64,000 nucleotides of DNA from Desmodesmus armatus (Eukaryota > Chlorophyta > Chlorophyceae > Sphaeropleales > Scenedesmaceae), in NCBI GenBank assembly GCA_007449985.2, contig VIIQ02000070.1:252501-316500 (forward strand), written 5' to 3'. Both the position numbers and the translations under genes were made by a program. The notes under the pieces were generated by a model that ran no database searches, had not been told where the DNA came from, and saw nothing but the letters and a program-made list of their open reading frames with translations. Below are positions 428 to 61,000 of this stretch, piece after piece; within the stretch, counting starts at the first letter, position 1; the number at the start of each line of letters is the position of its first letter.

Positions 428-3400
428 GGCTCAAGCAGATCTGATGCTGCGGCTGCAGTTGGCAGACCCAGGCCGCACCACCCGCCGCAGCGGCCTAGCA
501 GCTGCCATCAAACTGGCGTACTGCTGCGACTCCCCAAACGCCAGCAACTCACGCACCCTCATCAACAACACCTGCTCCTCCGACAACTGCCCACCATCAC
601 CGCTCACGGCGCCCGTTATCCCCCGGCTGCCGCCGCTGCTGCTGCTGCCAGCTGCCGTTGCTACAAGCTTCGAATGCTGCGGCAGCAGCTGATTCACATC
701 TAGTATATCCAACACATCCCCTTCAACCTGCAATCTCTGCCGCCACTGCTGCAGCAGCCCTGCATATCTATCGCCCCCTCCTGCCCCCCCACCATCCTGC
801 TGCCTCACCACCTGCTGCCCCTCCTCCTGCTGCTGCTCCCCCACACTCCCCTCTCCCCTCTCTCCTGCTGCCGCTCTCCCACTCTCCCCCCGCCACCCCT
901 GCAGACTTTTCCCCTCCCCTCCCCCTGCCCCTTTCACCAACGCACTGAGAGCAGCACCCACATCCTGACACACCAAAAGGCTCGCCCGGTCCCCCGCCAC
1001 CCCCACCAGCCGCTCCACGGCTAGCAGTGCCGCTGCAAGGAAACCGCCCATCGCATGCATCTCAGGCGGGAGGTGACTCAGCAAAAAGGCGGGAGTGAGG
1101 GCCAGGAGGGACGCCAGGGTGGCGAGGTCGGCCAGCACAGCTGACGGCGGCTGGGAAGCTGCAGCACTGCTGCCACTGCTGCTGCTGCTGGTGATGCCGC
1201 TGGTGCTGCTGCTGGGGGTCGCTCCCTCGTCATCGTCTTGCAACCCTGCGGCCAGGCAGCAAAGACAGCGGCGAGGACAATGGCTGAGTCAGCCAAACAC
1301 AGACAACACTTGCCCGCACAGCCACCACAACCCAACCAACACAGATGCCATTTGCAGCACCCCTTCGCCGCACAAGCCCTTTGCACCCCCCCCCTCGCCC
1401 CCTTGCCTTGTTACTGTTACTGTTACATGGTTCAGGCTGAGCCTGAACACCCCGTAGGGAGTCAACGAGGCTCATGGGGTATCGGCATCTGTTACTGTTA
1501 CTGTTACATGGTTCAGGCAGAGCCTGAACACCCCGTTCTGTTGCATGTCCCTCACATGGTTGTCGCCTTGCCGTGACTTCCGACCAGCCCAGCACGTACA
1601 CACTGCCACATCCCCATGCTGTACAGATGCCCCTTGCACCCCCTCACACACACCCGCGGCCTTGCCGATCTGCGCGGGCAAGGAACCACCACATGGTTTC
1701 CATCTTGCAGTCAACTTCCAGCCAGCCGGGACGTACACACACCCAGATGCCCATGCACAAAGCTCCCCACCCCACACACTCACCCCCAATCGCCAGTGGT
1801 GCCAGCGCCCTGCCATGGCCGCCTGCAGCTCAGCCGGCTGCAGCAGCTGCATCGCAGCACTGCTCAGCACCAGCAGCGGCGCATGCTGACATCGGGGCAC
1901 CACACCCCCACCGCTGCCGCCACTGCTGCCCCCCTTGCTGCCACCATTGCTGCCACCAGCACCCCCTGACCTGCCCCCCTTGCTGCTGCTGCTGCTGCTG
2001 CCGGTGTTGTTGGTGGTGGTGGTGCTGATGGTGTGGTTGCTCTTTGTGGTGGGCTGTGCTGGTGCGAGTGGGATGCGCAAGAGGCGCACAAAGGGGGTGG
2101 CCGCCTGCACGACCTGCACCCTTGGCAGGGGATGCAGCCGCAGGATGTCTGACGCCTCAAGCAGCAGGAAGTGGATGTGGGGGGCCTGGTGAGGGGGGGG
2201 ATGGGTGGGGGTGAGCAAGCAATTGCGAGGGGCAGGCATAGGAAAGGTGAGCAGGAGAGAATGCATGTGGGGTGCCTAGGGGGGGGGGATGGGATGCGCA
2301 GGAGGCGCACCTGCACCCGTGGCAAGGGGTGCAGCCGCAGGATGTCTGACGCTTCAAGCAGCAGGAAGTGGATGTGGGGGGCCTGGAGAGGGGGGGGGGG
2401 GGGGGGGAGGGGGGTGACGAAGCAGATGTGAGGGGAAGGCATGTGAAAGATGGGCAGCAGGAAGTGCATTTTTGGGGGGGGGGGGGCTGAAGAGAGGGTG
2501 GGGGGGGGCAAATATTGTGGAAGGAGAGCAGGAGAGAATGGATGTGGGGGGGCTGCAGGGGGGGGGGGGGGACGAGTGGGATGCGCAAGAGGCGCACAAA
2601 GGGGGCGGCCGCCTGCACGACCTGCACCCGTGGCAGAGGGTGCAGCCGCAGGATGTCTGACGCCTCAAACAGCAGGAAGTGGATGTGGGGGGCCTGGGCG
2701 TGGGGGGGGGCAAGATGGGCAGGTGGGCAGCAAAAAATAAAGTGTGAGGTCCCAGACAGGCGGGAGCAGGGGTTGCAGCTGCAGGATGTCTGATGCCTCA
2801 AGCGGCAAGAAGTGGATGTGTGTTGGGGGGGGGGGGGGGGGGGGCAGCCGAGAGGTGGGGGGCAAAGTTTGCAGGTGGGCAGCAGAGAGTATGTGTAAAA
2901 ATCCAGGCAGGCGAGCAGCACGCGAACAGTGGATGACGACCAAAGGTGCAAAAGCCATAGGTGTTTTGTACTTCGGATCTCAATCCTAGCAGGTGTTGTT
3001 GCTATCATACTGTAGGCCTTGTGACGTGTTGTTACATGCATGCGGGAGCTCTTGCAGGGGCCCAAATGCACACACACTTATGCTGTTCACACACGCACCT
3101 GCACATCCAGCAGTGCTTTGCCCAGGTCCTCGGGCCCCCCAAAACCCCCAACCACCGCCGGTGTTGCTGTTGTTTCAACCCAGGAGCATAATACAAGTCC
3201 ACCTGAGGAGAGAACCTTTGCCTTGCAAGGGCCCCAACTGCACACTCACTCACGCACCTGCACATCCAGCAGTGCTTTGCCCAGGTCCTCAGGCCCCAAC
3301 CCTCCTAGGAAGTGACCCCCAGCAACCCAACCCAGCAGCGCTGACATGCCAGGCCACGCCAGCACCTGCGACAGCAAAGGAGGGAGTCACCATTACCGGT

Positions 3401-20135: not shown

Positions 20136-21488
20136 GGGGGCTGTGGCACTGGGGTCCCATTGGGGTACACAAGGCAGTGGCGCTCTTGACGTGGGTTTGA
20201 CTGGCATGGGCTGTGGACTGCAAATGATGGCGTCTCAGAATGAACAATTCATTTTTCTTTCAGCAGTAGGCAGCGGTGGGTGCATGCTCTTGCAGGTGCG
20301 TAACAGCAGAGCAAGTTTGCGGGGGGGGGGGGGGGGGGGCTGGTTCTGTTTTGGGGCGGGGGATGCACATGTGCATCATGTTGATGGCGACTTGGTGAAC
20401 TGTAACATGGATTGGCACACTGGGTCGCATGATGAGTTGACAGACAACAGAATCATAACTTGCACCAGAAACTCAAAGGCACACATGGGGGCTGACACCA
20501 AGCGGGTCCCACACTGTCATTCATGCCCCCTGGTTCATGGCAGTATCCACCTGCACAAGCAGCAGGTGTACTGCCGCTGCAGCATGGGATACGTATGCCT
20601 TGAAGTGCTGCACAGCACACCAATCATTGATGGCATCAAAGCAAACTGCCACCACCTACTTCTTTTCGTTGACAGACACGGCAGCTTCAGCCTCTGCGAT
20701 CTTATTACAAAGCAAACTGCCACCACCCACTGTGCACAAGGTGTGACGACAAGACACATAGACCCAAACAGTCACTGATTGAGGAGTGGCCAGTCTTTGC
20801 TCGGGCAGATAAATACCCCCCATATCACACCTGTCCCTGATGGTGGCCCTTGAGAGCGGTGCACATCAGAAGCTTGAAGGACAGATTCAGCCAACGGCAC
20901 AGCAACCAAAGCAATGACACAGACCTACTGTACATCTAGACATGTCACGTCAACACAGACCATTGGAAGCACCACACGTTGCCGTAGACACAGCGACTGA
21001 CGCAGCCGCCTGCTGCAGCCAACAGCTCCGGGTACTTGCAGTCCCTGAGCTCCCGCAGGCAGCAAACAAGCTGTAAAGCCCTGGTGTGGAAGGCATGCAC
21101 ACCTCCCTTCAAAAACAGCACAACCTCCTGCACCCTACAAGTCAGGTACTTGACGCGTACAGGACTCCCAAAGATAGCCAACACGACCCTGTTCTCACAC
21201 CCACCCAAGACAGCAGGTCCTCAGGGCTAGAGCTAGGCTAGCAACTACAAAGTCAGGGTGCTTGAAGCCCCTGAACTCCCGCAAGAAATTCACCCCCGCC
21301 TCCTCGTATGCTGCCGCGTCATCGTCCCCGACCCATTGGTGCTGGCCAGCACCAAACGGATCACCCACCCACACCACCGGCAGAGCCATTGCTGCCAGGG
21401 TGTAGGGAGCCGCCGGCGGCACTGCTGCCAGCAACAATGGCGGCACTGCTGCCAGCCGCCAGGGCTGCTGCTCCCCTCTTGCTGGCGG
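20136..21488. other. Convergent intergenic region with ARP5 terminal-exon ghosts
   Basis: This lies between two gene 3' ends. It contains a poly-G tract at about 20,321-20,338. Two degenerate copies of the ARP5 C-terminal exon lie at about 21,245-21,440 (encoding [19 protein letters not shown]) and 21,003-21,060 (encoding LRELRDCKYPEL). Both are beyond the ARP5 stop. No independent gene is supported. Confidence 0.55.
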
Positions 21489-36900: not shown

Positions 36901-37268
36901 CCTCATTCATTCACAAGACCCACCCACAAACAGCCTGCTGCAACAGCCCCCATCCCACCACTGTCAACTGCACGTGTCTAACTGCTCAGCTGCAATTACT
37001 GCCAACTGCAATTGTTTAGCTGCTGACCTGTCAACATCATCCTGCACCAATCCTACATCTGTGTTGGTTTAGGGTTTAGGTTTAAACCCTAAACCCTAAA
37101 CCTTGGTTTGCCAAAGTCCCAACCACTAAGCCCTGGTCCAAAGTCTCCCACCACTGGTCCCAAGTCTCCCACACCCTGCTGGCCAGCTGCTGTACCCCAA
37201 TTTCGAAACTCAATGGGGTAATTTGCATCTCCGTTCATGGCTCAACTCCCCAAACCGTTCATGCGGAC

Positions 37269-39049: not shown

Positions 39050-39082
<33 letters not shown>

Positions 39083-42000
39083 TGTGGCGTGTCTGCAGGG
39101 GGGGGGGGAGTGATGTAGACACAGGGAGTGCAACCAGCCAATGCGTCAGTCATCTCACCATCCAAGGATCTCCGAACTCCGAACTTTGGTATACGTGCGT
39201 GGGAGCGCACAGTAAAATAACATTCAATCAAGAACAATAAAAAGGAATCCTTTCACCTGGGCAGCTTGCCTCCAGTCTCGCCAGCACCCTCCAGCATTCG
39301 GATTACTGCTTGGCTGCCTGATCGCTGCTGCTGCTGCTGCTGCTGCAACTTTAAGAACGAATTGCTGCGTATTGGATGTGTATGGTTCTTGTGGGGGGGA
39401 GGGGAGGGGAGGGGAGGGGAGGGACTGGCAGAAGGGGAAGATTAGACATGTGGCAAAGGGTAGGGGGGGGGGAGGGGAGGGGTATGGCAGGAGAGCATAT
39501 TGTGCTCGGAGCCATGTACTTGGTGAGAGGCAGCAGCAGCGATGTGGTATTATGGGGTTTGTGGCCATGGGTTTGGGGGGGGGGGGAGAAACAGGGGCAG
39601 TTGGCAGGGGGGGAGGGAGCTGGAGCCATGTGCCGGGTGAGCCGAAGCAGCAAGGAAGGGGTGGCACATGGCACTGACGCACAAAGCTACACACACCCTC
39701 CACGTTCACCATTTTCTGTGCAGGTGTGGATCCGTCCTGGGGGCGGCCTTGCTGAAGAATATCTGCAGCTGATCGAGTCTTTCACTGCCAACAACACTGA
39801 GGCAACAATGATTGCACTGCTGGGGATCTTTGCTGTCTTTCACAGTGGGCTGGCAGGGCTAAGGCCACAAGGTGGGTGAGCCTCACACACCACCCGGGGT
39901 GTGGGAGGGGGGGGGGGAGGGGGGGGGGGGATGTGGCTGGGGGGCGCGGGGAAGTGTGGGGGTTGTCTTCCACAGTGGGCTAGCAGGGCTCAGGCCACAA
40001 TGTGAGTGGGTGAGGAGGGGGGGGGGAAGAGGTGAAAGTGTGTGGAGACACAGGGAGTGCATCCAGCCTGTTGGTGAGTGGGTGGGGGGTGGGGTGATGG
40101 GGGGGGCACTGCTAGCCATCTTTGCTGTCTTCCACAGTGGGCTGGCAGGGCTCAGGCCACAAGGTGGGTGGGTGTGAGGAGGGGGGGTGACGGGGGGGGG
40201 GGGGGTGCTCTTTTCGCACCAGGGCTGAGGCTGCAAAGTGGTGTGTGGGGTGAGTGGGGCAGCGGGGAGTTGGGGAAGGGGCGATGCCGGGGGCAAGGGG
40301 GGGGGGGGGGGGCGGATAGTCCTCATGCCATGATTGAATGACTTGTGTGTGCACATACCATGAGCCGCCTTTGCAGCTGTCGCGCACAGCATGTCGCACA
40401 GTAAGCCATCACGTTCGGTGGCTGCGCCTACCTAGTGCCCATGGGGTGCCTTGTTGCTGGTAATGTCTGGCAGCAGCGGCAACAACTTGTCCTGAGAATC
40501 TGGAATCAGAATCTGAATCTGAATCTGATCTCTCTCTTTTCTGTGTTGGTCTCCTGTGCAGGCGAGAAGCTGATAGGTGCCCGGGCCTACCGTGTCATCT
40601 TTGCCCTCATCAGCCTGCCCCTGGCCGTCACGACGGTGGTAAGTGGCATGCATGAACACTGTTCTAGAGTACAGTACAGTACAGTACAGTACAGTACAGC
40701 ACAGTACAGTACAGTACAGTACAGTACAGTACAGTACAGTACAGTAATTGGGGACAGAGTCCCAAACTCGGCGCTAGCCAGCGAGCCACGGCTCATGAGG
40801 GTGCCCAGAGGGCCTACTAACGTACCCCAGTCTCTCAGGTCAGGTGTGAAGGCGATCGAAATCACCACCAAGCCAGCCGTCAATTCCAGTAGCATTTTAT
40901 GTCCCTGTGGTGTGCTTAGCTTGCTTAGAGGTTCCCTGTGTGGTGTGGGGTGTAGGGTGTGTGCCTGCAGCGGCTCAGGTGCTGAGTGACTGCACAGCAA
41001 GTAGAGCTTGGCGGCTGAGCTCGAGACAAAGTGAAAATTTGTCAAAAAAAAACCAAAAAAACAAAAAAAACCAAAAAAAAACCAAAAAAAAAACCACAAA
41101 ACACCAACAAAACAAAAAAATATTGTCAAATGACTCACCCTGTGATGCTTTGTGTATGTACCTGTACCGCAGGTGTACTTCATCAACCACCGGTACAGCG
41201 GTACGCCCCTATAACCCTCTGTGCATGCATCTGTAACGGAGGTGTACTAATGAGCCCACCAGTAAAGCGGTACACCCCTATAACCCTCTTTGTATATGTC
41301 TGTACCGCAGGTGTACTTCATCAACCACCGGTACAGCGGTACACCCCTGTGGAACCCTCTGTTTATCTATCTCTATGTGTAAAGTATCAACCACCAGTAC
41401 AGCGGTACACAACCAAAACCTCTGTATGTGTACTGCAGGTGTACTTCATCAACCACCGGTACAGCGGTACACCCCTGTGGAACCTACAGGCCGTCCCCGG
41501 CATGCACAGCGCTGTGTGGGCGCTGTCTTTCATCAGCTTTTTCTTCTTGTACCCCTCAACCTTCAACATCTTGGAGGTTGCTGCTGTGGACAAACCTAAG
41601 CTGCACTTGTGGGAAACAGGAATCATGCGCATCACACGACACCCACAGGTTAGTAAAAAGGGTGTGTGTGTGGTTTGTGGGGCGGGGGGGGGGGGGGGGC
41701 GTCAAAGGGTGCGTGTGGCGTGTGTGTGTGTGGGGGGGGGGGGGGTGCACAGTGCTGTGTGGGTGCTGTCTTTCATCAGCTTTTTCTTCCTGTACCCCTC
41801 AACTTTCAACATTCTGGAAGTTGCTGCTGTGGACAAACCTAAGCTGCACCTGTGGGAAACAGGAATCATGCGCATCACACGACACCCGCAGGTTAGCAAA
41901 AGGGTGTTGGTGTGTGTGGTGGTGGTGATGGTGGGGGGGGGGGGCATGATCAAAAGGGTGTGAGAGGGAGGGGATTGCACAGTGCCGTGTGGGCGCTGTC

Positions 42001-42255
42001 TTTTGTCAGCTTTTCCTTCTTGTACCCCTCAACCTTCAAACATTTTGGAGGTTGCTGCTGTGGACAAACCCAAGCTGCACTTGTGGGAAACGGGGATAAT
42101 GCACATCACATTTGCTGCCCCCCCCCCCTGCAGGCGTTTGGCCAGGCGCTGTGGTGTCTGGCTCACACCATGTGGGTTGGCAACAGCTTCATGGTTGCCA
42201 CCAGTGCTGCTGTAGCACAGGACAGAAATGAATGGTGCAGCAACTTTGTAGCGTT

Positions 42256-42288
<33 letters not shown>

Positions 42289-44491
42289 AGGCGTTTGGCC
42301 AAGCGCTGTCGTGCCTTTCTCACACAATGTGGGTTGGCAACAGCTTCATGGTTGCCACTAGTGCTGCTGTAGCACAGAACAGGATCGAAAACAGGTGCAG
42401 CAACATCGTATCATTTGCTGCTGCTGCTGCTGTTGCTGATGATGATGCTGCTGCAGGCGTTTGGCCAGGCGCTGTGGTGCCTTGCTCACACGATGTGGGT
42501 GGGGCAACAGCTTCATGGTTGCCACCAGCCTGGGCTTGATGGCCCACCACGCCTTTGGCTGCTGGCACGGGGACAGGAGGCTCAAGGACAAGTATGGGGA
42601 CGCATTCGAGAAGGTGAGGGGGGAGGACTTTAGCCGCAGGTTCAACAGTCAGCTGCATGCCAGCCCGCTGCTGCTGCTGAGGGGGGGGCATGTTGGACGG
42701 GGGACAGGAGGCTCAAGGACAAGTACAGGGACGTCTTTGAGAAGTTGACGTCTTTGAGAAGTTGGTTTTGTGTGTGGGGCGGGGGGAGGGGGGGTAACAA
42801 AACAGAGGGGTGACATGAAAGGCGGGGGCGGGGGGTAACTAGAAGGGGGGTGGTGGAGGACGGGAAGGGAAAAGTGCCGGGACAGGAGGCTCAAGGACAG
42901 TTACGGGGACGCATTCGAGAAGGTGAGAGGAGGGGTGGCGGAAAGAGGGGGAGACAAGAAAACATATGGGTGACAGTAATTGGGGAGAAGGGTGAGGGAG
43001 GCCGGGGAGGGGGGGGACACGGGAAGGGGGGGGGGGCGAGGAATCAGTGAAGGGGGGGGGGCGCGAAAAAGCCCCCCCCCCCAAAAAGGGCATGGCAACG
43101 TGGGTAGTAGGGGGACAGACGGCTCAAGGACAAGTACGGGGACGCATTCGAGAAGGTGAGGGGGAAGGAGGAGCGGGGTGTGTGTGTGGGGGGGGGGGGG
43201 TTGTGTGGGTTTGGATGGGGGTGTGGGGGGGGGGGGTGGAGGATGAGTGTGGGGCGGGGGAGGGGGGGGGGCACAGGTGTGGGGTGCGTGGGGGGGGGGG
43301 GGGGGAGCAGAGGGGTGTGCAGACAGCGGGCAGCAGTGTGAGGGGTTTGCAGAAAACGAGAAAGGGAAAGGTGTTGCGGTAGGTGCAGGGACAGACGGTC
43401 CAGGGACAAGTATGGGGACGCGTTTGAGAAGGTGGGGCGATGGTGGTAGTATGTGGTGTTTGTGTGGCAACTGAAGGAGTGCACCGGGGGATGCCCTAGC
43501 ATGTACCACACAGATATTCAAATACGACGTTGGCGCCAGCGCGTTTCCATGCAGTATAGGTTTGTGGATGCCGCAAGTTGCTGTGTATCATATGTAGTTT
43601 AGTAGCCCCAAGCTGTTGGGTGTGAGGAGCGCGCGCGCGCGCGGGGGGGGGGGGGGGGCAGTTTTGAAAGCTGGCGCATGACAGTAGTAAAAATACTGCA
43701 ACAAGGCATGCTGCAGTACTTTTACTAATGCCGCTCGTCAGCTTTCAAAAGCCTCTCCCCCCTCGCCCTCTGAGGGACTGCAGAAGTTGATTGCATAACA
43801 AGTGTGCTCACATTTGTACTGGGAGTTGAGCACATTTGCTGGATGAGTGCCAATCACGTCGCCTGACCACTTGCCGTGCCTGCATCAACCCTTCAAGAGC
43901 GGATCAGCATTACCTTTCACACTTTGCAGTTACAGCATGTGGCACGGCAGAGCCGTGCGCACGGGTTGCATGCAACCCGCAAGGGAGCCAGGGGCTCACG
44001 GAGGAACTTTTGCCGCCATTTGGACTGTCAAGCTAAGCGGCACATGACACAACCATGACAACGTTGAGGCACCTCCACATACGTGTGACAGTCACACCAA
44101 CAATTTATATCTGCAATTGCCCCTGATGTGGTTGCAGGTCAAGGAGCGGACCAGCACTGTGCCCTCTTGTCACACTCTGCACTGCCGTCATCGTGGACCG
44201 TGACTGTAAATGGCACAGGGCATCATCAAAATTGTGTGAGGTACCTCCCCGTACTTGCAACAATCACAATCACACTAACAATGAAAGCATCTGCCCGTGA
44301 CATTTTTGCAGGTCAAGGAGCGCACCAGCACCGTGCCCTTTGCCGCTATTATGGACGGCCGTCAGAAGCTTCCTGAGGACTACTGGAAGGAGTTTGCACG
44401 CTGGCCTTATGTGGCGGTTACCTGCTTCACCCTGGGGGCGTATATCTGTCATCCATTGATGCAGCGGGCCAGCTACAGCCTGCACTGGTGA
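38546..44491 (+). CDS. Z-ISO: 15-cis-zeta-carotene isomerase (NnrU family), plastid, 6 exons, 382 aa
   Basis: Exons: 38,546-38,923; 39,724-39,871; 40,562-40,638; 41,439-41,648; 42,457-42,613; 44,312-44,491. Phases agree once one extra base in exon 5 is allowed for. The first ~90 residues are Ser/Arg/Gln-rich, as in a chloroplast transit peptide. The body is a multi-span membrane protein matching plant Z-ISO nearly throughout: FHSGLAGLR, GARAYRVIFALISLPLAV, VYFINHRYSG, LYPSTFNILEVAAVDKPKLH, LWETGIMRITRHPQ, AHTMWVGNSF, GDRRLKDKYGDAFE, PFAAIMDGRQKLPEDYWKEF and HPLMQ, ending SLHW. The enzyme converts 9,15,9'-tri-cis- to 9,9'-di-cis-zeta-carotene between phytoene desaturase and zeta-carotene desaturase. 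The plant enzyme is known to use heme b with two His ligands; the candidates here are the His of FHSGL and of TRHPQ. Plant Z-ISO is about 367 aa. Confidence 0.93.
39505..40165 (+). repeat. Ghosts of Z-ISO exon 1 donor edge and exon 2 donor edge
   Basis: GGAGCCATGTACTTG plus a GTGAG donor recurs at about 39,508 and, degenerate, at 39,615 (exon 1 end). FHSGLAGLRPQ-encoding copies lie at about 39,965-40,000 and 40,125-40,165, downstream of exon 2. Linkers are poly-G. Confidence 0.75.
40669..40870 (+). repeat. Dispersed repeat with (GTACA)n head
   Basis: About 15 GTACA units precede TTGGGGACAG, GCGCTAGCCAGCGAGCC and GGCTCATGAGGG. Copies are at 17,211-17,262 (inverted) and 24,352-24,425. It lies in Z-ISO intron 3. 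Confidence 0.7.
41044..41120. repeat. Poly-A/ACC low-complexity tract
   Basis: Runs of A with CC interruptions in Z-ISO intron 3. It produces Lys-rich or Phe-rich spurious frames. Confidence 0.85.
41170..41410 (+). repeat. Acceptor-edge ghosts of Z-ISO exon 4, four copies
   Basis: The segment GTGTACTTCATCAACCACCG recurs at about 41,174, 41,240 (degenerate), 41,311 and 41,378 (degenerate) before the real acceptor at 41,439. The period is about 65-70 bp. Two copies keep CCGCAG acceptors. Confidence 0.85.
41745..42120 (+). repeat. Donor-edge ghosts of Z-ISO exon 4, two copies
   Basis: About 145-base copies encoding AVWALSFISFFFLYPSTF onward to HPQ plus donor lie at 41,745-41,891 and 41,978-42,115. 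The first is almost identical to the exon; the second has an indel (TTCAAACATTTTGG) and lost its donor. Confidence 0.9.
42134..42400 (+). repeat. Acceptor-edge ghosts of Z-ISO exon 5, two copies
   Basis: CTGCAG followed by codons for AFGQALWCLAHTMWVGNSFM recurs at 42,134 and about 42,291 before the real exon at 42,457. Both ghosts keep the intact frame that the real exon lacks at about 42,500. Confidence 0.9.
42700..43440 (+). repeat. Donor-edge ghosts of Z-ISO exon 5, four copies
   Basis: GACAGGAGGCTCAAGGACAA-type copies, encoding RLKDKYGDAFEK plus a GTGAG donor or a decayed form, lie at about 42,704, 42,880, 43,120 and 43,385. They are separated by poly-G linkers. Confidence 0.85.
43662..43750. 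repeat. Imperfect ~40-bp hairpin in Z-ISO intron 5
   Basis: Arms 43,662-43,700 and 43,711-43,750 pair with a few mismatches (TTTTGAAAGCTGGCGCATGA against the complement of TTTGAAAGCTGACGAGCGGC). The loop is about 10 nt. The shape resembles a miRNA precursor or a small foldback element. Confidence 0.7.
43895..44190 (+). repeat. Acceptor-edge ghosts of Z-ISO exon 6, two copies
   Basis: GTCAAGGAGCGGACCAGCAC at about 44,139 keeps a TTGCAG acceptor. A more decayed copy lies at about 43,890-43,930. The real exon starts at 44,312. Confidence 0.75.
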
Positions 44492-46779: not shown

Positions 46780-47000
46780 TTCCTGCAAGTCAAGGGACGA
46801 ATTCGCAGCAGCACCGTGCCCTTCGGGCGGCTGCCAGAAGCCTCCTGAGGGCTTTGGAAGGAGTTTGTGCGCTGGTCCTACGTAGCTGTCACCTGCTTCA
46901 CCCCCACGGTGATTGGGGGCATGCCATGCCATGCTCAGTGAGCATGGCATTCATGCACCATGCTCATGCAGCTGACCAACTACAGCCTGCACTGGTGATG
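46780..47000 (+). pseudogene. Degenerate copy of the Z-ISO last exon
   Basis: About 220 bases match exon 6: GTGCCCTTCGG, then GAAGGAGTTTGTGCGCTGGT, then ACTACAGCCTGCACTGGTGA. It has frameshifts and an internal palindrome (ATGCCATGCTCAGTGAGCAT at about 46,925). It lies 2.3 kb downstream of the real exon, in the Z-ISO/kinesin intergenic region, and cannot encode the domain. Confidence 0.8.
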
Positions 47001-47450
47001 GGTGTTGAATTGTGCGGGTTCTTTGTAATGTCAGTTTATTGCTGAGGGGTTTGGTTTTCAGAGTCAATATTGTGGTTGGTGGTGGGGTTTGCACCCGAAC
47101 TGACTCACTGAGCTCGAGCCAGGCAAAACTCGGAGGGGGAGGCTGCTGCTCAATAGCTGCAGAGCAAAGCACACTACAGCATGGTTCTTGTGTCATTACT
47201 AAAGGGGTTAGCAGCAGCTCTGCAACACAGCATGGCTCTGAGCTGTGACACAGAGCCTGTTGCAGTTGTGCATGACAGTTGAGAGCTGTCCCATTTGAAT
47301 ACAGGGCAGCCCTGCACAACCACTCCACTGGTATGCATCTCATGCAGATATCCAGTGCATTCAAGATTCCAAGTCTTACATTCAGTCAGACAGGCAGCCG
47401 TCCGCATTTCGACAAATTCATTCACCCATCAGAGCGTTCAGGCAGCTGCG

Positions 47451-49309: not shown

Positions 49310-49353
<44 letters not shown>

Positions 49354-52300
49354 CTACAGAGCTGCACAGCTGGCATGAAGGTCAGCCTGTCAGTCATGGA
49401 GATCTACAATGAGGCCATTCACGACCTGCTGGCTGCTCCCATGGTGCGGCTGGGCAAGCCTGCTGCCCTGAAGCTGAAGGAGGACAAGGCGGGACACATC
49501 ACAGTGCCTGGGCTGTCAGAGGTGGGTTTTTTTGGGGGGGGGGGGGGGGGGCTGGCGAGTTAGGGGGGGGGGGGATGTGCAGGTAAGCTGCCCATCCACC
49601 TGCAGCTGGGGCACACTGAATGGCAGCTGAGCTGGCACCTGGAAAAATAGGCACTTCAGTAGCTGATAGGTTTGTAGGCCAGGGCTCAAGGGCCTGAAGC
49701 AGCAGTGCGTATTGTTGCATGACAGCAGCAGGCAGGGTTGCTGCCCTGAAGCTGAAGGAGGACAAGGCAGGACACATCACAGTGCGGGGCTGTCAGAGGT
49801 GGGTGGGTGGGTGGGTGGGTTGGTGGGTGGGTGGTGGGCTGGATTTGGGGGGGGGGGGGGCGGTGATGTGCAGGCAAGTTGTCCATTCTCCTGGTTTGCT
49901 TGAGCACACTGGCAGCATTTGATTTGGCACATGGCAAAACCAGGCAGGGCTGCTGCCCTGAAGTTGAAGGAGGACAAGGCAGGACACGTCACAGTGCCCG
50001 GACTGTCAGAGGTGGGTGGACTGGAGGGTTGGGTGGGGGAAAGGCGGGGGGGGGGGGTGCCTTGCAGATATTGTCATCCTTCGTAATGGGCAAAGGCATG
50101 ATACCACATCACAGTGCGGGGCTGTCAGAGGTGAGTGGGCGGGCAAGATTGGGGCGCTGGGGTTTGTGCTCACTGTGCACAGCCACCACAAGCACAACGC
50201 GCCGCTGCGCTTGTTGTGACCGTGTTCTGCAGCCGCCCAGGAGAATTGCTAGTGGCACATGTGTGGGTGAGAACTTTCGAAAGCATTGCACCCAAACTTG
50301 CTGCTACTGTGGCCCCTGCTCCTATAATACGTGACCTGCACCTCCCCCCTCTGCACCCCCCTTCCCCCTCACTTGCACCCCACCACACTCTGCTTTACCC
50401 CACCCCACCCATCCCTGCACCCTCCCAGGGGTGTGTGTGTGAGCAGCATGCGTGAGGCCCAGGAGCTGCTGCGCAGGGCAGCCAAGGCACAGCCTGCGTC
50501 CCAACTTTTCAACAGCAGTCCCCCTGGTGGGCCGGCTGTTGCCGCCTCCCTGCCCATATCTGACCTGCACCCTTGCTCCCCCCTTTGATGTACACGCTCA
50601 GCCACCCGTTTGCACCGTCAGCCTCCCCCCCCCTCACCCCCTGCACCATCACTGTCACCCCCCCCCCTCCCCGCAACCCCGATCCCCCCCCCCCAGGTTG
50701 TGTGAGCAGCATGCGTGAGGCCCAGGAGTTGCTGCGCAGGGCAGCCAAGGCCCGCCAGTCCTCAGGGACCAACGCAAACGAACGATCCAGCAGAGCCACG
50801 CAGTCATCACGGTGAGCAGCTTGTGTGTGTAAGCTGGCTCTTTGAGGGGTGTTCAAGCGTAGCCTGAACCATGTCACAGTAACAGTAAGTAGCTAGAGTG
50901 CATGCATGTGCTGTAATGCGCCCAGAACCGTCCTGCCAGGACCCAAAACGATGACGTCTGGAGGGAAGGCCAGGCTGTGTGTGTGTGGGGGGGGGGGGGG
51001 GGCTATTGCCCCAACGTGGAAGGGGCTATACCAGTGAAAGATACGTTGGCGTAGGAAGCGCGGCGGGGGCTGTGCCTCGTAGCGATGCGGACAACAGGGC
51101 ACGGATGTCGCGTTGCTGCAACCCACTGTGTACTACATCAACATGGTCGAAGCCGAGTGCTTCTCATGTACGATTAACCACTTTGGTTGCTACCTCCCAT
51201 CACACCGCATGCCTGCTTGTCTTCGCTGTAGGTCAAAGTGGGCCCGGCCAGCACAGCTGGCACTAAGCAGGACACCCCAGCAGCAGCAGCAGCAGCAGCA
51301 CCCGTGACCGGCGGCCTGTTGACACACCTACAGCAGCGGCAGGCCAAGCAGCAGCGGCAGCTGCAGGGGTGGCGGCACTGCCAGCTGTGCTTTGTCGACC
51401 TGGCTGGATGTGAGAGGGTCAAACGCACCGGCAACTTTGGGGCGCGTCTCAAGTGAGTGGCGGAGGGTGGTGTCTTGCGCTGTTGTGCAGTGGGTTTTTG
51501 TATGTTGGCAAAACTCATCCTGCAGTGCATGCCTTGGTTCCACTTAGTCAATTGAGGGGTGGCGGCACTGCCAGCTGTGCTTTGTTGACCTGCTGGGTGT
51601 GAGAGGGTCAAAGGCACGGCAACTTTGGGGCGCGTCTCAAGTGAGTGGCAGAGGGTGACTGCTTGCGGTGTTTTGCAGCCTGCAGATGGTATTTGTAGGG
51701 AAGACTATCTGTTGTGTCTCTTGTATTTTTTGGTTTTGTGTCTCTTGTAGGTAACCTAACCGCCTGGTGGTGCGCTGTATGGCACCCAGGTAGAATTGTT
51801 GCTATATGAACAAGGAACCTGCTGAGAAAATGTGTAATGATGATGATGACGACTCATCCTGCAGCTCATGTCCTGGTGTCACTTGGTCATAAGAAGCATT
51901 GCTGTCACATCCAGGCATGCTGTCTGCCTGTGCTGGCGGGGTGGCGGAGGGTGATAGCTTGCCTTCACCTGCTTGTGCTGCAGGGACAGTGCCGCAAGCC
52001 TGCCACCGAGAGGTGTTGTGGTACGCCAGTACGTAGCCCGCACCACGCTGCCAAATTGAGAGTACTGCTGCACTGTGCTGTCGCTCTGGCCTACTGCTGC
52101 TGCTGCTGCTGGTGCAGGGAGAGTGTGTCCATCAACAGCTCCCTGTACGTAGACCGCATTATGCTGCCAAACATCACCGCAGTATCGTACTGCTGCTGCT
52201 GCTGCTGCTGCTGCAGGAGAGTGTGTCCATCAACAGCTCCCTGATGACACTGGCCCGTTGCCTAGAGGTGCTGCGCTACAACCAGCAGCACCCCGCAACA

Positions 52301-54973
52301 GCAGACCAGAAGGTCATTCCATACAGGGAGAGCAAGGTGAGCGCTCCCATGCGAGTTTGGTCCGGGCGCTGGGCACGTCCTGGAATAAGGCATGCTAGGC
52401 GTCCCTCATCGGTGAGGCATAGCCTCCGGCCCCTGGCAGTCAGGTAGCCTGACTGAGTTGTGTGTGGCCAGCCGGTGGGGTTTGCACCCCCTTTCACTAC
52501 AAAACACTTCAAAGAAACTGCACAGCAGACCAGAAGGTCATTCCATACACGGAGAGCAAGGTGAGCACAGCACAGCCGCAGTACAGTACCATACAGTACA
52601 GTGCAGATGTAGGGTTAGGGCCGTGAATAGGAGCGCCAGAGGCTCACTGTTGCTGCATCCGATACAGGGAGAAACAAGGTAAGCGCAGTACAGCCCAGTG
52701 CAGTACAGTACCATACAGTATTGTACAGCTGTTGTGTGAAGGTTCTGGATAGGGACGGATGAGGAACACGCGTTTGCCGTAAAGATACACAGACATAGGC
52801 AGCAGGGCGCAGGGGCCGGGCGCCTGCTTGCAGCCACATGCTTTGTTGTGGCTGGGCTTGGGAGCTTGTATGGTTTGAGAGCAGTTGACAGCCCTGCTGG
52901 TCAGCTGAACGGAATGAGCTGATCAAGACTATCATGCATGATGGGCATTGTGGGTAAATGCACGCACATACGCAGCTGTGCACCTCTTAGGCCGAACTCT
53001 GCTGCCTGCTGACAGCCTTTTGGAAAACCAGCGTGGCGTGTGGACTGTAACGTGCCGTTTTTGGTTTGTCTGGGCCGCGAGGGTGTCTGCATGTGTGATG
53101 TGTGCTTGCAGGCATGTGTGCTGACACATTTCTTGGAAACTTGTGGCACGGCTGCTGCTGCAGGTGACGCATCTGTTCAAGGACGTGCTGCACGGCCATG
53201 GGCGCTTTGTGATGGTGGTGAACGTCAATCCAGCAGCGGACGAGTTCAATGAGACCAAACGCGTGCTGCAGGTAGGGCTGGTGTGAGGAGGGGGTTGAGG
53301 GGGGGGGGGGGGGCAATGACGGCAGCATGGAAGGGCTGCAAGCAGCAGCAACAGCAGCAGCAGGCGGCTCAGGTGGTGGGGGCCGTGTCATGGTGTCAAC
53401 GAGGGTAGTTTGATGGTGCAAGGGGCATCCACTTGAAAGCAGCACCCCTCAACAACCAGCAGCGGACGAGTTCAATGTGACCAAACTCATGCTGCAGGTA
53501 GGGCTGGTGTGGGGGAGGTGGGTCAGGGGGACCGTGTGCGGATGCTGGGAGGGTACTGCAGTTATCATTGAGGAAGCCTGATGGGATCCAAGGGGGTGAG
53601 GTGGGTGCACCGTGTGACCACTCTCGTGGAGGTTGTGTGTTGGTGGTTGGATGGGGCAGGGCAGCCACTTGAAAGCAGCATCCCTCAGCAACCCAGCAGC
53701 GGACGAGTTCAGCGAGACCAAACGCGTGCTGCAGGTAGGGCTGGTGTGGGGGGGAGGTGGGTCAGGGGGACCGTGTGCGGATGTTGGGAGGATACTGCAG
53801 TTCTCACTGACCAAGCTTTACGAGAGTTGACATCTACAGTCTCTAGTCTTTACCCCCCCCCCCCCAATTTCGACACACAACACCACACTGTGTTTCCTGC
53901 AGTACGCTGCGCTGGCCAGCAAGGTCACCCTATGCCGAATTCTTTACCCCCGCCCGGGTTTAATTCACTAGTATGGGGCGAACGGCGGGAAAAGGGGGGT
54001 ATGGGGCGGCGAAGCCGCCCCGAAAATCGGGTGAATTGAAGTGAATTGAAGTCAATTCACGCGCGTCAGCGCGTGAATTGACAAGCGTGCGTGTGTCACG
54101 TGGCTTAGGCGCGCTAATTTGGTAGAGAGCCCTGGCTGCCATGAAGTGGCTTGTGCAATCCATTTGTTGACTGCATGTGATGTATGATATGTCCGGGACT
54201 AATCCAAAGTCCTCTGTCAAGTTGCTTGGTTGCTGTACGTTGATTCATGCTTGTTGAGCTATGACAAACTGCTGCCTGCACAGTCCAAAATCCATCCTGC
54301 AACCACTCCTTTGCTTGCACCACACAAGTGCTGGCATCAGAGGCATGTCAACATGGCTGTTTATCGCAAACAAGTATGCCGGGCCACATGTGGCACATAT
54401 ACAGCCCATTAACCAGGTTATACCACAGAGAAAAAGGTACATGTCATGCTAATGATTACTGTGGACAAAACATGCTAGTAGCACGTGTCACATAGGACCA
54501 CTTCGACATCACACAACCAAACACAACCAAATCACAAGCACACAACTGCCTTTCTGGCAACCTGAGCACTTGCAGAAGGTGCACTCATGCTTGTGTGCAG
54601 GCAACGCATGCTTGTGTGCATGCGTTGCCTGCACACCTCCGGCGAATGCACTTGCTGCATCTACTGTCAGAGGCTGATCTCGCGGCAGCTGGCCAGCTGC
54701 TACCTGCTGCTGCATCCTCACCAGTGTGCGTAGCACACTCTTCTTGTTGGCCCGAGCACCACCCTTCCCTGGACCCCTTGGTTGGCTGCTTACTGCTGCA
54801 CTGGTGCTGCACTGGGCTTCCCAAAGATACTCTGCCAAGCCATTTCTGCTGGACATTGCCCCTGCCTGCTGCTGCTGCTGCTTCAACAGCAGCAGCATCT
54901 TCCTTACTGCAGCCAGCGGCTGCTCCATCTGTACTTGCAGCAGCAACAGCAACAGCAGCAGCCTCCATTGCTG

Positions 54974-55008
<35 letters not shown>

Positions 55009-58000
55009 TGCTGCCCTCCATTGCTGCCAGCAGCAGCAGCGGCAGCAGCAGCTGCTGCCCGCCATTGCTGCCAGCAGCAGCAGCAGCTGCAGCCCCTCCA
55101 TTGCTGCCAGCAGCAGCAGCTGCTGCCATTGCTGCTCTGTCCTGAACTTGCTGGGTAGCTAGTGACTGCCCGTGCTGGATGCTGACCTTGGTGAAGTGCT
55201 TCCTAAGCTGCAAGACCTGCTTGTAGGTGAATGCCTTTCCAGCCCCATGCAACAGTGGCACCTGTGCATTCCAAGCATCTGGCATGGCGGCCCTGAAGTC
55301 AACACTGCTTGCTAGCAGCCTCAGAGAGGTTGCTGCCGTCGGCTGGAAGAAACTGGGGCAGCAGCTGCATGAACAGTTGCTGCTCCTCCTCTCCTCGCAC
55401 CTCACCCACAACTGCATCAGCTGCCAACCCAGTTGCAACCCTCAGGGCAGAAGTTCTGTTGCCCAGCTGGGGGTCTGCTGCTGGCGCCACTGCTTGAGGG
55501 CTGGCTGCGTATCCTCATCTGCCCCCTTTTCACCAGCAGTGCAGCTGTTACTGTCAGCAGCCTGCGACGGCGCTGGGGGGGGGGGGTCTGCAAAGCCTGC
55601 AGCATAAAGCAGTTGCAGATACACAAAGCAGGCAGCTTGTGCGCTTGAGCAGCCATGCGCAAATCACATCCACTTGTTACATGAAGTACATTGCTGGTAT
55701 ACATACACAACACAGTCAGGCAGCCAGGTGTCGATATCTACACTGTGAAGAAAACACCAAGTGCAAAACCCTCTGCAGGGTCTCGTCTCCCCTCAGCCAC
55801 CTACACAAGTGTGTCCCAATCAATCGCTGCCCATGGGTCCTCTGCTGCCCCTCACCTGTTGCAGTGAGCTGTGCCATTTTGGCTGTGGTGAGCAGGTTGC
55901 GCTCCCCTCAAGGTTGGCTGCCTCATTCTTGGACCTGCCACACTGGCAGTGCCACAGAGTCAGCTCACTTGCTCTGGCCCACCTGCACGTACAAGTTGAC
56001 ACACGGGGTTCTGCAAACACAACAAGAAGACATCCCTGCCGAGTCAGCACCTGGCAGTATGGTTGGTACTAGCATGTACGAAGCCTCAGCTGCCGACAGC
56101 AACAGCACCAACATGCCCCAGCCCAGCCCAGCCAAGTTTGATGACCCTGCCCAGCACAGCTAGCCAGCTCAGCACTCACCACTCAGCGTGCCCTTGTGCA
56201 CCAGCTGCATCGGGTCAGAAACACCTCCACGCAAGGCAGGGCAGGCTTGAAAGTTGAGTTCCAGCCATGTCCCAAGGGCTGAAGGTGTACTCTGCAGTCA
56301 CAGAAGCAAGGGCACAGTAGATTCAACACGGCATGCAGCACCGTCCAATCTCATGGACCCCATACTGAAAACAAGAAGCAGCGCAATGAGCGGTTGAATC
56401 ACCCCAGTGCGAGCAACCCAGCCTCAGTGGAAACAACAGCTGTCGAAGCAGTGTACTATCAACACACCACACTGCTTGAAGCTCACCGTTGTGGCTGGGG
56501 TGTCCCTAGTGTGTCATGCCCTGGCTGAACACCTTCTGCTGGCCATCCAGCAGCAGGATACAGCGGGTGCCCTGCCTCCACCCATTGCCCGGCAGTACCC
56601 CACACCGCCGGCACTTGGGGAACCTCAGCTGACCAATCTTGCAGTACCGAGTGAGTCACCTGCAGGGGAACAAAACAGACGGGTCAGGGGGGATTGCAAC
56701 ACCTGCTGTCTGCCAGTACTGCTTCGGCCCTTGTAATCTGTGCTGTTGCTGGCCAGACTCTGCTGCTGGACTCTGATGCTCCGCTGCATGCCCTGGAGAC
56801 CTCAGCACTTACGCAGGGTATTGAAGACGGCAAAGTCCTGACCATGTGTGTGGCGCTCCTGCAGCATGGCCTGCTGGGTGGTGCTGGGTGGTGTCGACAG
56901 CACCCACCAAGGCTGCAGTCATTCTGACGTGCCCTGAGCCACAGGCTGGGCAGCTCTGTGCCAGGCTTGAGATATCCACTCGTGTAGTCTATAGGGGTGT
57001 TGTCAGCTGCCAGACGTCGTCGCATGAGCTGCTCTGCTTGCTCAGCAGCAGTAGAGTGTCTGGCTGGATCACTGCCCGCTGACTTGGCTTTGCAGCGTGG
57101 CATGGGTACGAAACGTGGACTCTAATTCGTTCGAGCCGATATCGCTAGCGCACGTGGGCCAGCATGGCGCTGCGGGCCTGCTCGAGTGAATTGGATCGTG
57201 ATCAGGTTGGTGCTCAGACAGCAGCAGCACTCTCAGGCTGGCTCCGCAAGGGCTCGGACTCGTCTCTACACATGCTCAAAGGTTCCGTATCGGCCGCGGA
57301 CTGGCTGCTGGTGGACTTGGAGTGAATTGGACACCTTCAATTCACTGAGTGAATTGAACCCCATACCCCTCCCCCAACCCCTGCCCCCCTCCCCCATGCA
57401 CTGCAGTACGCTGCGCTGGCCAGCAAGGTCACCCTATGCCCAATTCTTTACCCCCCCTCCCTCCGCCTCCCCTCCCCCCCTCCCCCATGCACTGCAGTAC
57501 GCTGCGCTGGCCAGCAAGGTCACTCTATGCCTAACTCTTTACCCCCCTCCCCCCCCCCCCCCAATCCCCCATGCACTGCAGTACGCAGCGCTGGCCAGCA
57601 AGGTCACTCCATGCCCAACTTTTTACCCCCTTCCCGCCCCCTCCCCCCCCCCCCACCCCCCCACCCCCATGCACTGCAGTATGCTGCGCTGGCCAGCAAG
57701 GTCACCATGACCTCCAAGGTGGAGCACGACATACTGGTGGGGCCAGATGGGGCCTGGGTCCACACAGCTGCTGGTCTCGTGCACTCTATCCCCCCCTCGC
57801 TGCACCAGCAGCTTCATGCGCGCGACCTCTGTACCCAACTCTTCACCCCCCGTCCCTGCCAACTCTTCATCCCCCGTCCCTGCCACACACCCCACCACCA
57901 CCACCCCCAACACACTGTGTTTCCTACAGTGCGCTGCGCTGGCCAGCAAGGTCATTATGACCTCAGAAGCGAGGCACGACATACTGGTGTTACGCCCTGC

Positions 58001-61000
58001 AGTAACAAAGGCATCTTCATGATGATGGATTTCACACCTTCCTCCGCCCCCTCTGTCTTGTCTGCAGTACGCTGCGCCGGCGGCTTCATGATGGTTGACT
58101 CTATGCCTATCTCTTTACCCCCCTCCCTCCCCCTCCCTCCCCCATGCACTGCAGTACGCTGCGCTGGCCAGCAAGGTCACCACGACCTCAGAGGTGGAGC
58201 ACGACATACTGGTGCTGTGCCCTGCAGTAAGAAAGGCAACTTTGTGGTGATTCAAGCCCCCCCCCCCCAAATAAGTAGATTTCGACAGAACAAAACAACC
58301 CAAAACCTACAATCTACTAAACACCTCTCCTCCCCTGTAAATTTCTGCAGTACACTACGCTGGCCAGCAAGGTCACCATGACCTCAGAGGTGGAGCACGA
58401 CATACTCATATGCCCTGCTGCAATACAGGGAGCTTTGCGGTAATTCTCTTCATACTCTCCTCCCCCATGTTCTTGTTTGCAGTACGCCGCCCTGGCCAGC
58501 AAGGTCACTATGACCTCAGAGGTGGAGCACGACATAGTGCTGTTGTGCCTTGCTGCACTATAGGCAACTTTGTGGTGATTCAACCCCCCCCCCCCCCCAA
58601 AAAAACTAGAGTTCGACAGAACAAAACAACCCAAAACCTACAATCCACCTAACACCCTCCTCCCCTGTAATTGTTGCAGTACGCTGCCCTGGCCAGCAAG
58701 GTCACCATGACCTCAGAGGTGGAGCACGACATACTGGTGGGGCCAGATGGGGCCTGGAGCAACGCAGCTGCTGGTGGCGCTGCCAGCCAGCCTGCTGCTG
58801 CTGCAGAGGCAATACAGGCAGCGGAGGCTGCGGCGGCGGCTGCACGCTCTGCACTGTCGTCTGCTCAGGTGGGTCTGAGACACACACATGGGGGTTGCAA
58901 CTGCTGCGGTCTTAGCGGGAGACAGTGATTGCTGAAGGAGGGGCGGGCCACACATCATTTGCATGCTTGGATCGTCCAGGTCAGACCTGGGGGCCTTGCA
59001 AAACCGGCAGGCTGCTGCAGCTGAGGCCCGGCAGGCAGCGGAGGCTGCTGCAGCAGCAGCACGCTCCGCACTGTCATCTGCTCAGGTAGGGTCAGCACAT
59101 ATGTGTGAGACTGCAGCTGTTGAGGTCGCACTGGGATACATGGGGGTCTGCAGCCCCGGCTGGTGCGGTCTCAGTCGGATACAGTGATTGCTTAAGGGGG
59201 AAAGGGCGGTAGGGGGACACAGTTGCCACACATCATTGGCATGCTTTGGATCGTCCAGATTAGACCTAGGGCCTTTCAAAACCGGCTGCTGCTGTGGAGG
59301 CCCTAAACAGGCAGCGGAGGCTGCTGCCGCACTGTCGTCTGCTCAGGTGGGGTGGACACACGCATGCGGGGATGCAGCTGGGGTGATGGCTGTTACGGCT
59401 TGTGCGGCAACTGTTACCCCGGGTTTTTTGGGGGGGGGGGGTACAGACATATCTGCCACGCATCAGTGGCATGCTGTTGCTTGGATGGTTCACTTATGCT
59501 GATGTCTGAGTATGTTGACTGGAGTCAATGGGGCTGTTGGGGAAGGTCAGAGCTGCTGCCAAAGCAATCTGTACACAGAGATGAGTGTGTCTGCTGTCCT
59601 GGCAGGGATGAGTATGGAAAGATCACAAGGCAGATGCAGAGGGTGCTGCTGCTGCTGCTGCTGCTGTTGCTGCTGCTGTGTTTTGCAGGGTCGCATTGAG
59701 GAGCTGTTGGACGACAAGGCTGACCTGGAGTATGAGATTGACGTGGTGGAGAAGAAGGTGGAACTGCTGAGGGAGGAGGTGAGGGAGGGGGGAGCGGCTG
59801 GGGGGGGGGGGGAGTTGGCAGGGGCCCAGGGAAGGTCCATTGGTAGGGGCAGTGGTGGAGAAGAAGGTGGAGCTGCTGAGGGAGGAGGTGAGGGAGTTTA
59901 AGGGTGGAGGGGGCAGGGCTGGGGTGCGAACGGAGGGGCCCCGGGAGGTTGGCAGGGACCAACAAAGTTTGATGGACAGGTGCTGTGATGGAGGAGAAGG
60001 AACTGCTGAGGGAGGAGGTGAGGGAAAGCTAGCGAGGGAGGGACTGGGGCGAGAAAAACAAAGAGGTGGTGGGAGAGGACGGTGGCAGTCGCTGGGTTTG
60101 AGTTCAGTGGCGGAGAGGCCTTTGATGGGAGGGGTGGTTGGCAATGTGGTTGGCCGGCCGGCATTTTTGTGGAAAATGGTGTTCCTATGAATCCTGCACC
60201 CACCCACCCATCACCACATGACACTTGTGTCCTCTGCTTTTTGTGTGCAGCTGATTCAGGCTGAGCTAGAGAAGGAGGCACTGGAGGAGGGCATACGCAC
60301 GGAGGTGGCTGCAGAGATGCAGGTGGGTTGGAGAGGCCATGGGTGAGGGTGGGGGGGGGGGGCTGTTCCACCCCCCCCCCCCCCCCAACCCTCACCTTTG
60401 GGGTGTAGTGGCAACGGTGCAAAGCAGACAAGCAGCAGAAAGCACCAGCTGCTGTGGGAGAGGTGCACCTGAACTGTTCCACACCCCCCCCCCCCCACCC
60501 TCACCTCTGGGGTGTAGCAGCCGCCAAAGTGCAGGTGGATTGATTAGGCAAGGGGTCTGATGGATTCAGTCAGGCTTGAGCGGGAGGTTGCAGATCAAAG
60601 CATGCATTTGCAACTTTGCAGATGGATGCAGAGATGCAGGGGGGTGGGATGGGCGTAGGGGTTGGGGGCTGGTTGGACCTGCTGGGGTGCAGCAGGAGGA
60701 CTTGGTCAGGTTGAACTTGAGAAAGGAGGCGCTCGAGAGGGGCATACTCCCAAGTATGTCCTCGGGCATATGAGGGGAGTGAGGTGGGGCGCGAGTGCCA
60801 CTAGACCCCCATGCATGCATGTGATGAGCCGTCCTCATTGGACGCGAGGCTTTTGGAAGCAATTCTATAGCGTAACTTCACCAAGGGGGTGTGTAGGTGG
60901 ATATAAGTTGAATTTTACTCATAGGAGGGGGCTGCAGAGATGCAGGTGGGCCAGTCAGGCTGACTTTGAGCTGGGAAGGCAGGCAGACGCCTGCTTGGGA

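What the first reader, a model, noticed from the sequence alone, without database searches (positions are those of the whole stretch)
428..61000. Exon-edge tandem duplication is a general rule in four multi-exon genes
In more than 20 introns, partial exon copies follow one rule: acceptor-end fragments lie upstream of the real exon and donor-end fragments lie downstream. A tandem duplication whose unit runs from inside an exon into the adjoining intron produces exactly this: the original exon stays whole and the intron gains a splice site plus exon scrap. Repetition yields arrays. This would enlarge introns while sparing coding sequence and flood them with decoy splice sites. I know of no named description of this as a genome-wide habit; it differs from introner-type intron gain.
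Basis: partly seen in the sequence, partly recalled or inferred. Interest (0 to 1): 0.88.

Follow-up and report, generated by a model that had tools for sequence, protein, structure and literature searches.

The report
Exon ends copied into neighbouring introns
In three checked genes in one stretch of a green-alga genome, the ends of exons have been copied again and again into the introns beside them, on the side that leaves the working gene intact; the copies look like decayed pieces of a somewhat different version of the same gene, which hints at faulty DNA repair between unlike gene versions.

Summary
In three genes whose exons I could anchor to relatives (zeta-carotene isomerase, ARP5-like, kinesin; 33 exons), 76 local exon copies were found: 35 acceptor ends upstream, 34 donor/3' ends downstream, 7 internal, none wrong-sided, none whole. 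24 of 33 exons and 23 of 30 introns are affected. The fourth gene gave no Pfam match above cut-off and was not tested.

The reading is only partly right. (1) Not shown to be genome-wide: 3 of 93 exon cores in 23 other kinesin regions carry an edge copy; but the window was chosen for being striking and these controls look colder than the genome mean. (2) Not random tandem duplication: 6 intron-only pairs against 32 affected edges; random placement predicts 69% against 23%. (3) In 29 of 69 edge copies homology stops within 10 nt of the splice site, although such copies are no older than those sharing intron. (4) Exon-copy differences are about 70% synonymous, although copies now decay without constraint.

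Best reading (0.4): joins between diverged versions of the gene, alike only in exons, then array growth. New variant of internal gene duplication.

The parts
38546..44491 (+). 15-cis-zeta-carotene isomerase (Z-ISO, NnrU family), 6 exons; only locus found in this assembly
   Evidence: Pfam NnrU; 76-78% identity of the joined exons to two proteins of public sets; all 12 rows on C66
21489..37881 (-). ARP5-like actin-related gene, 14 supported exons
   Evidence: Pfam actin; tblastn with P0121/P0123
47439..61290 (+). kinesin gene, 13 supported exons
   Evidence: Pfam kinesin, just under the curated cut-off per exon; tblastn with P0126/P0127
32431..32744 (-). ARP5 exon A4, real copy
32872..34013 (-). 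A4 acceptor-end fragments upstream: 5 copies, two with intron flank shared (shifts 248, 493), three with unrelated flanks (741, 938, 1262)
31174..32342 (-). A4 donor-end fragments downstream: 5 copies with intron
36657..37156 (-). A2 donor-end fragments downstream of exon 37381-37524 (one of the two falls 7 nt short of the edge)
30592..30649 (-). A5 donor-end fragment; flank unrelated to that of exon 30857-30942
29941..30024 (-). A6 donor-end fragment, 95% identical, 4 differences all at third codon positions, flank unrelated
29605..29675 (-). A7 acceptor-end fragment, own pyrimidine-rich flank
28969..29043 (-). A8 acceptor-end fragment
26993..27050 (-). A10 acceptor-end fragment
25933..26061 (-). 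A11 donor-end fragment (129 bp), homology ends at the splice site
24923..25728 (-). A12 acceptor-end array (4 copies) upstream of exon 24532-24791
24025..24312 (-). A12 donor-end fragments (2)
22872..22911 (-). A14 acceptor-end fragment
21858..22392 (-). A15 (last exon) acceptor-end array, 4 copies
21237..21478 (-). copy of the stop-codon end of last exon A15: non-splice edge copied too
39502..39535 (+). [not shown]
39964..40170 (+). [not shown]
41148..41410 (+). [not shown]
41746..42110 (+). [not shown]
42128..42361 (+). [not shown]
42700..43437 (+). [not shown]
44065..44190 (+). [not shown]
46804..47004 (+). [not shown]
49731..50136 (+). K6 donor-end fragments (3)
50341..50488 (+). K7 acceptor-end fragment
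51555..51678 (+). K8 donor-end fragment
52091..52145 (+). K9 acceptor-end fragment
52343..52505 (+). dispersed repeat of about 160 bp lying between K9 and its donor-end copy
   Evidence: 39 further copies listed, 40 of 431 candidates scored
52522..52566 (+). K9 donor-end copy (45 bp, 98%); with the exon end it flanks the dispersed repeat like a long target-site duplication
53456..53760 (+). K10 donor-end fragments (2)
57402..58542 (+). K11 acceptor-end fragments (8; a ninth lies at 53898-53929)
59011..59380 (+). K11 donor-end fragments (2)
59852..60025 (+). K12 donor-end fragments (2)
60620..60950 (+). K13 donor-end fragments (2, weak)

Best explanation
Shown: local, same-strand copies of exon ends lie beside their exon on the side that keeps the exon whole; the copies decay without coding constraint; intron-only duplications are rare; in about two fifths of the edge hits the copy stops at the splice site and has a different intron flank; most differences between copy and exon are synonymous. 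Inferred: the primary events were joins between two diverged versions of the same gene (haplotypes of the population, or a past hybrid or homologous copy) that are alike in exons but not in introns. A break or exchange inside an exon is repaired on the other version (only exons offer homology), synthesis runs out past the splice site into that version's intron, and the end is then joined to the old exon end. This leaves exon + new intron stretch + old exon edge + old intron. Products that do not run past the splice site break the gene and are lost, which gives the side rule. Once two like exon ends exist, unequal crossing over grows them into arrays that also share intron. The region stays hot as long as such versions meet there.
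For: Side rule 69 of 69 and 0 whole-exon copies; 76 same-strand against 3 opposite-strand hits. Edges above random placement: 32 affected edges against 6 intron-only pairs, null 23% against 69% (binomial about 3e-14 for 32 of 38). Homology stops within 10 nt of the splice junction in 29 of 69, flanks visibly different, several pyrimidine-rich or with a good donor. Neutral age alike in both classes: second-position differences 0.041 where extension is <=16, 0.037 where it is >60, so loss of intron homology by ageing does not fit. Synonymous:nonsynonymous:stop 101:43:0 (<=16) and 91:46:1 (>60), where a neutral copy of the same chromosome predicts about 42% synonymous. Changes private to one fragment are even over codon positions (36/31/40), deeper ones third-biased (17/6/48). 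Of nonsynonymous differences that orthologues can decide, 64 put the change in the fragment and 4 in the exon (42 undecided, 16 without orthologue). The inner flanks of A6 and A7 and of A8, A10 and A11 (40 of 162 candidates scored) gave no match elsewhere in the assembly, as expected for another haplotype's intron.
Against: No second haplotype, strain or sister species could be read, so the diverged version is inferred, not seen. The synonymous divergence it needs (third-position differences about 0.13-0.17) would be very high for alleles of one species (my knowledge). In K9 the inner stretch is a dispersed repeat, which fits an insertion with a long target-site duplication better. Copies that share intron also show the synonymous excess, which needs inheritance from an earlier primary event; the middle class (extension 17-60, 9 hits) is less clear, 21:17:1. 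Anchored flanks of acceptor copies score slightly above mismatched pairs (12.6 against 10.2, sd 3.6), so faint flank homology is not excluded there; donors show none (11.7 against 11.4). 45 fragment-derived pairs were set aside, some of which may be mostly intronic. Hits of one exon are not independent, so the p-values are too small. Some excess could come from faster change at third positions in general (private changes give a factor of about 1.2 +- 0.25, my arithmetic).
Confidence: 0.4

Rival explanations
1. Ordinary tandem duplication on one chromosome (slippage or break repair with units of 70-300 bp), filtered by selection so that only products with an intact exon survive; the intron parts later became unrecognisable while exon parts stayed visible because the real exon changes little.
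Against: Copies without intron homology are no older than copies with it (0.041 against 0.037); intron-only pairs are too few; the synonymous share is 66-70% against about 42% expected.
Confidence: 0.25
2. Insertion of about 80-200 bp of DNA near an exon edge with a long target-site duplication (staggered break filled in and joined with filler, or a SINE-like retroelement).
For: K9: a repeat of about 160 bp with 39 further listed copies lies between the two copies of the exon end.
Confidence: 0.13
3. Assembly artefact: contigs of two haplotypes or strains joined end to end, so that an exon edge appears twice.
Against: Fragments have decayed (nonsynonymous changes in the fragment 64:4, frame-breaking gaps in 19 of 62), arrays of 4-9 different copies exist, and 23 other regions of the same assembly show little of this.
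Confidence: 0.12
4. Capture of nearby DNA at breaks in introns (repair-mediated duplication by SDSA, Pace et al. 2009).
For: Size and distance fit (passages of PMC2671141: proximal copies mean 162 bp, within 5 kb).
Against: By my inference it predicts both orientations and either side; here 76 against 3 and 69 of 69.
Confidence: 0.05
5. The fragments are kept for a function (alternative exons or splice decoys).
For: Splice dinucleotides kept in 60 of 68 alignable cases.
Against: That rate is about what the general divergence gives; private changes show no coding constraint; frame-breaking gaps.
Confidence: 0.03

Closest known systems
[quoted passage not shown] seen only as cited in PMC4974935 and PMC9612004, the paper itself is not held)
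   Same: Duplication inside genes, including exon/intron segments (as PMC4974935 cites it; the rest recalled)
   Different: Here one edge per event, many rounds, no new intron, clustered in the region read, copied stretch often ends at the splice site, differences mainly synonymous
Repair-mediated duplication by SDSA (Pace et al. 2009, PMC2671141, passages read)
   Same: Short local copies, including splice sites and partial exons, proposed to arise during break repair with an ectopic template, possibly on the homologous chromosome
   Different: There spread through the genome with exons rarely involved (of 824 donors 4 partial exon/intron, 2 full exon, 2 exon with both flanks) and one exon copy inverted; here direct, side-bound and centred on exons
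Small tandem duplications from break fill-in (Schimmel et al. 2021, PMC8355091, abstract and passages; Vaughn and Bennetzen 2014 only as cited there)
   Same: Direct duplication at a staggered break
   Different: No reason (my inference) to avoid introns or to stop at splice sites
Intron gain by tandem duplication (Rogers model; Ma et al. 2016, PMC4974935, passages)
   Same: Tandem copy carries splice signals
   Different: No intron gain was seen; existing introns grow
Introners (PMC9860276, listing and start of abstract only)
   Same: Adds intron sequence
   Different: No dispersed sequence found at five tested edges (A6, A7, A8, A10, A11); one edge (K9) does contain a dispersed repeat

Membership tests
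Simple tandem duplication (exon into intron) | Copies in direct orientation, beside the exon, side rule | tested here: met
   69 of 69 edge hits; 76 same-strand against 3 opposite
Simple tandem duplication (exon into intron) | Adjoining intron copied with the exon part | tested here: inconclusive
   met in 30 of 69 (extension >30 bp), not met in 29 of 69 (<=10 bp), 10 between
Simple tandem duplication (exon into intron) | Breakpoints indifferent to exons | tested here: not met
   6 intron-only pairs against 32 edges; null 69%:23%; 45 fragment-derived pairs set aside
Tandem exon duplication (mutually exclusive exons) | Whole exons duplicated | tested here: not met
   0 of 76
Introner / transposon insertion | Inserted stretch repeated elsewhere in the genome | tested here: inconclusive
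   [not shown]
Repair-mediated duplication by capture of nearby DNA | Either side and either orientation of the donor (my inference) | tested here: not met
Join between diverged haplotypes | Synonymous-biased divergence together with unrelated intron flanks | tested here: met
   faint acceptor-flank similarity not excluded
Join between diverged haplotypes | The other haplotype exists with those introns | not testable with these tools
   no relatives or second haplotype held

The most novel reading that the evidence does not exclude
A block of the genome in which the two homologues (or populations) have become unalignable everywhere except in exons: recombination can start only in exons, and every imprecise repair leaves an old exon edge as a fossil in the intron. 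Introns of such a block would grow outward from the exons, and their fragments would record past alleles of each exon.
Probability: 0.3. Interest if true: 0.78.

Novelty: new variant of a known kind. Interest (0 to 1): 0.6.

Why it matters
It gives a way for introns to grow that is tied to exons rather than to mobile elements, and it leaves datable copies of exon edges that separate a coding phase from a neutral phase. If the cross-haplotype reading holds, such arrays would mark genome blocks with deeply diverged haplotypes in a single assembly. Even on the simplest reading, gene annotation and isoform studies in such genes face many intact decoy splice sites.

Tried and rejected
Genome-wide habit: tested on 23 other kinesin regions; 93 of the 121 PF00225 rows lay in fetched stretches; 3 of 93 cores had an edge copy, 2 more an internal hit. 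Caveats: cores are Pfam matches, not full exons, and long C/G runs (16-mers) are 1.31/kb in the window, 0.10/kb in those controls and 0.476/kb genome-wide, so the controls look colder than average and the window need not be unique.

Mating-type locus as the cause: the RWP-RK search listed 3 rows, none on C66; this does not exclude another kind of special region.

Degenerate second copy of the genes: the Z-ISO search lists C66 only. The same searches for the kinesin and ARP5 proteins did not complete.

Detection by rows alone in the actin and TCP-1 families: the ARP5 array shows up; one possible weak acceptor copy in a C226 actin-like gene (E 2.17); among 72 TCP-1 rows I saw no clear repeated ranges, only partial overlaps such as two C571 rows (17-73 and 45-101); sensitivity too low for more.

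Residual homology between different-looking flanks: weak hint at acceptors (12.6 against 10.2, sd 3.6), none at donors (11.7 against 11.4).

x+y being a multiple of 3: noticed by eye, dropped, because alignments tend to end at third-position mismatches.

Selection on splice dinucleotides of fragments: 60 of 68 kept, about what divergence gives.

Literature: searches listed no paper that I could recognise as describing exon-edge arrays as such; only the held open-access library was searched, by words, and only the listings were looked at beyond the four papers read in passages (PMC4974935, PMC8355091, PMC9612004, PMC2671141). Two key papers are not held.
Full report
WHAT IS THERE. The window is G000:C66:252501-316500 of a 115.8-Mb assembly in 831 contigs. 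It comes from a green alga, probably Sphaeropleales (my inference): named relatives of the Z-ISO protein among the best hits are mostly chlorophytes, and among the few relatives of the ARP5-like gene and at the top of the kinesin list are Tetradesmus obliquus or Scenedesmus proteins. Three multi-exon genes can be anchored exon by exon: Z-ISO (+, 38546-44491, 6 exons), ARP5-like (-, 21489-37881, 14 supported exons), kinesin (+, 47439-61290, 13 exons). Of the nonsynonymous differences between real exons and fragments, orthologues put 64 in the fragment and 4 in the exon, with 42 undecided and 16 without orthologue, so the exons called real are the real ones.

THE RULE. All 33 exons were compared with their own gene region: 76 same-strand hits, 35 acceptor-end upstream, 34 donor/3'-end downstream, 7 internal, 0 wrong side, 0 whole. 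The same queries gave 3 hits on the opposite strand and 5 in the other two genes. Affected are 24 of 33 exons, 32 edges and 23 of 30 introns (counted by hand). In one Z-ISO intron the order is exon 4, two donor copies of exon 4, two acceptor copies of exon 5, exon 5. The stop-codon ends of two last exons are also copied. The geometry follows from any tandem-topology duplication in which the exon must stay whole, so by itself it does not reveal the mechanism.

NOT SPREAD EVENLY. In 23 other kinesin regions (93 exon cores), 3 cores have an edge copy and 2 more only an internal hit (Fisher p about 2e-15 for 24 of 33 against 3 of 93; cores are Pfam matches, not full exons). All eight 8-kb slices of the window hold 5-28 local direct pairs; the 23 control loci hold 0-3.6 per 8 kb, 16 of them none. 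The one readable neighbour, 1 kb beyond the window, has one pair in 3 kb; the stretch fetched on the other side reads N. The window also has more long G or C runs and microsatellites. The window was chosen because it was striking, and the controls have fewer C/G runs than the genome mean, so the share of hot genome is unknown.

NOT PLAIN TANDEM DUPLICATION. Random placement of units (28 lengths typed from the nearest shifts) over these genes as they now are would give 69% intron-only, 23% partial-edge, 5% whole-exon and 3% exon-internal events. Found were 67 pairs overlapping exons, 45 pairs overlapping exon-derived fragments (set aside) and 6 intron-only pairs, at least two of low complexity, against 32 affected edges. 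In 29 of 69 edge hits the homology ends within 10 nt of the splice junction, in 30 it runs >30 bp into the intron, in 10 between. The flanks of the first class are visibly different and several look like splice regions of their own; a scoring test leaves room for faint similarity at acceptors, none at donors. Ageing does not explain the first class: second codon positions, which count mainly neutral change in the fragment, differ by 0.041 per site there (extension <=16) and 0.037 in the class with shared intron (>60).

THE COPIES CARRY A CODING HISTORY. Differences between exon and copy fall on codon positions 42/27/109 (extension <=16, 34 hits), 13/8/25 (17-60, 9 hits) and 48/26/95 (>60, 25 hits); synonymous:nonsynonymous:stop is 101:43:0, 21:17:1 and 91:46:1, where a neutral copy of the same chromosome should give about 42% synonymous. 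Sorted by who carries the change (exon edges with at least two copies), those private to one fragment are even (36/31/40), while those setting the exon against all or several fragments are 17/6/48 (a looser set gives 46/40/53 and 17/6/51). So fragments decay freely now, but much of their distance from the exon arose while both were coding. One fragment per edge gives the same picture (41/31/104 for 32 edges). Hits within an array are not independent, so the p-values overstate.

AGAINST KNOWN KINDS. Internal gene duplication and repair-mediated duplication cover the raw event. Pace et al. (PMC2671141, passages) describe short proximal copies by SDSA, including a few partial exons, and suggest templates on the homologous chromosome. 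What I did not recognise in the listings of the searched library is the strict exon-edge concentration with splice-limited copies and synonymous-biased divergence. I rate this a new variant of a known kind.

LIMITS.

Noticed in passing
52343-52505: SINE-like repeat of about 160 bp with an A-rich end and a strong predicted fold; 39 further copies listed, 40 of 431 candidates scored; none in the other loci held.
   Followed up: partly
L059:3-331: A copy of that repeat on C13 has 10-bp direct repeats at its ends and, further out, a 40-bp direct repeat (83%) around the whole.
   Followed up: partly
39044-39375 and 40727-40920: Two other dispersed repeat families sit in Z-ISO introns 1 and 3, without flush exon-edge copies.
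   Followed up: no
exons near 42500, 48366, 48860, 50790: 1-nt frame breaks in or near short runs of one base in otherwise conserved exons (my reading); assembly error or real.
   Followed up: partly
53898-57402: A 5.4-kb kinesin intron holds a minus-strand ORF of 310 aa (54509-55441) between one acceptor copy of K11 and the rest of the array.
   Followed up: no
46804-47004: Decayed copy of most of the last Z-ISO exon 2.5 kb beyond the gene.
   Followed up: partly
34146-35941: Plus-strand ORF of 160 aa (34146-34628) inside the ARP5 gene region, with local copies nearby (34189/34779, 34783/35854).
   Followed up: no
6252-6493: Tandem repeat of a 99-bp unit (a multiple of 3) inside a long minus-strand open frame of the untested fourth gene.
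   Followed up: no
45416-46472: Intergenic direct repeats (shifts 223, 500, 723) downstream of Z-ISO, so local duplication is not confined to genes here.
   Followed up: no
window as a whole: Tetradesmus obliquus orthologues of ARP5 (OEZ85_013359) and the kinesin (OEZ85_013146) come from contigs of the same length, 6,027,792 bp, probably one contig.
   Followed up: no
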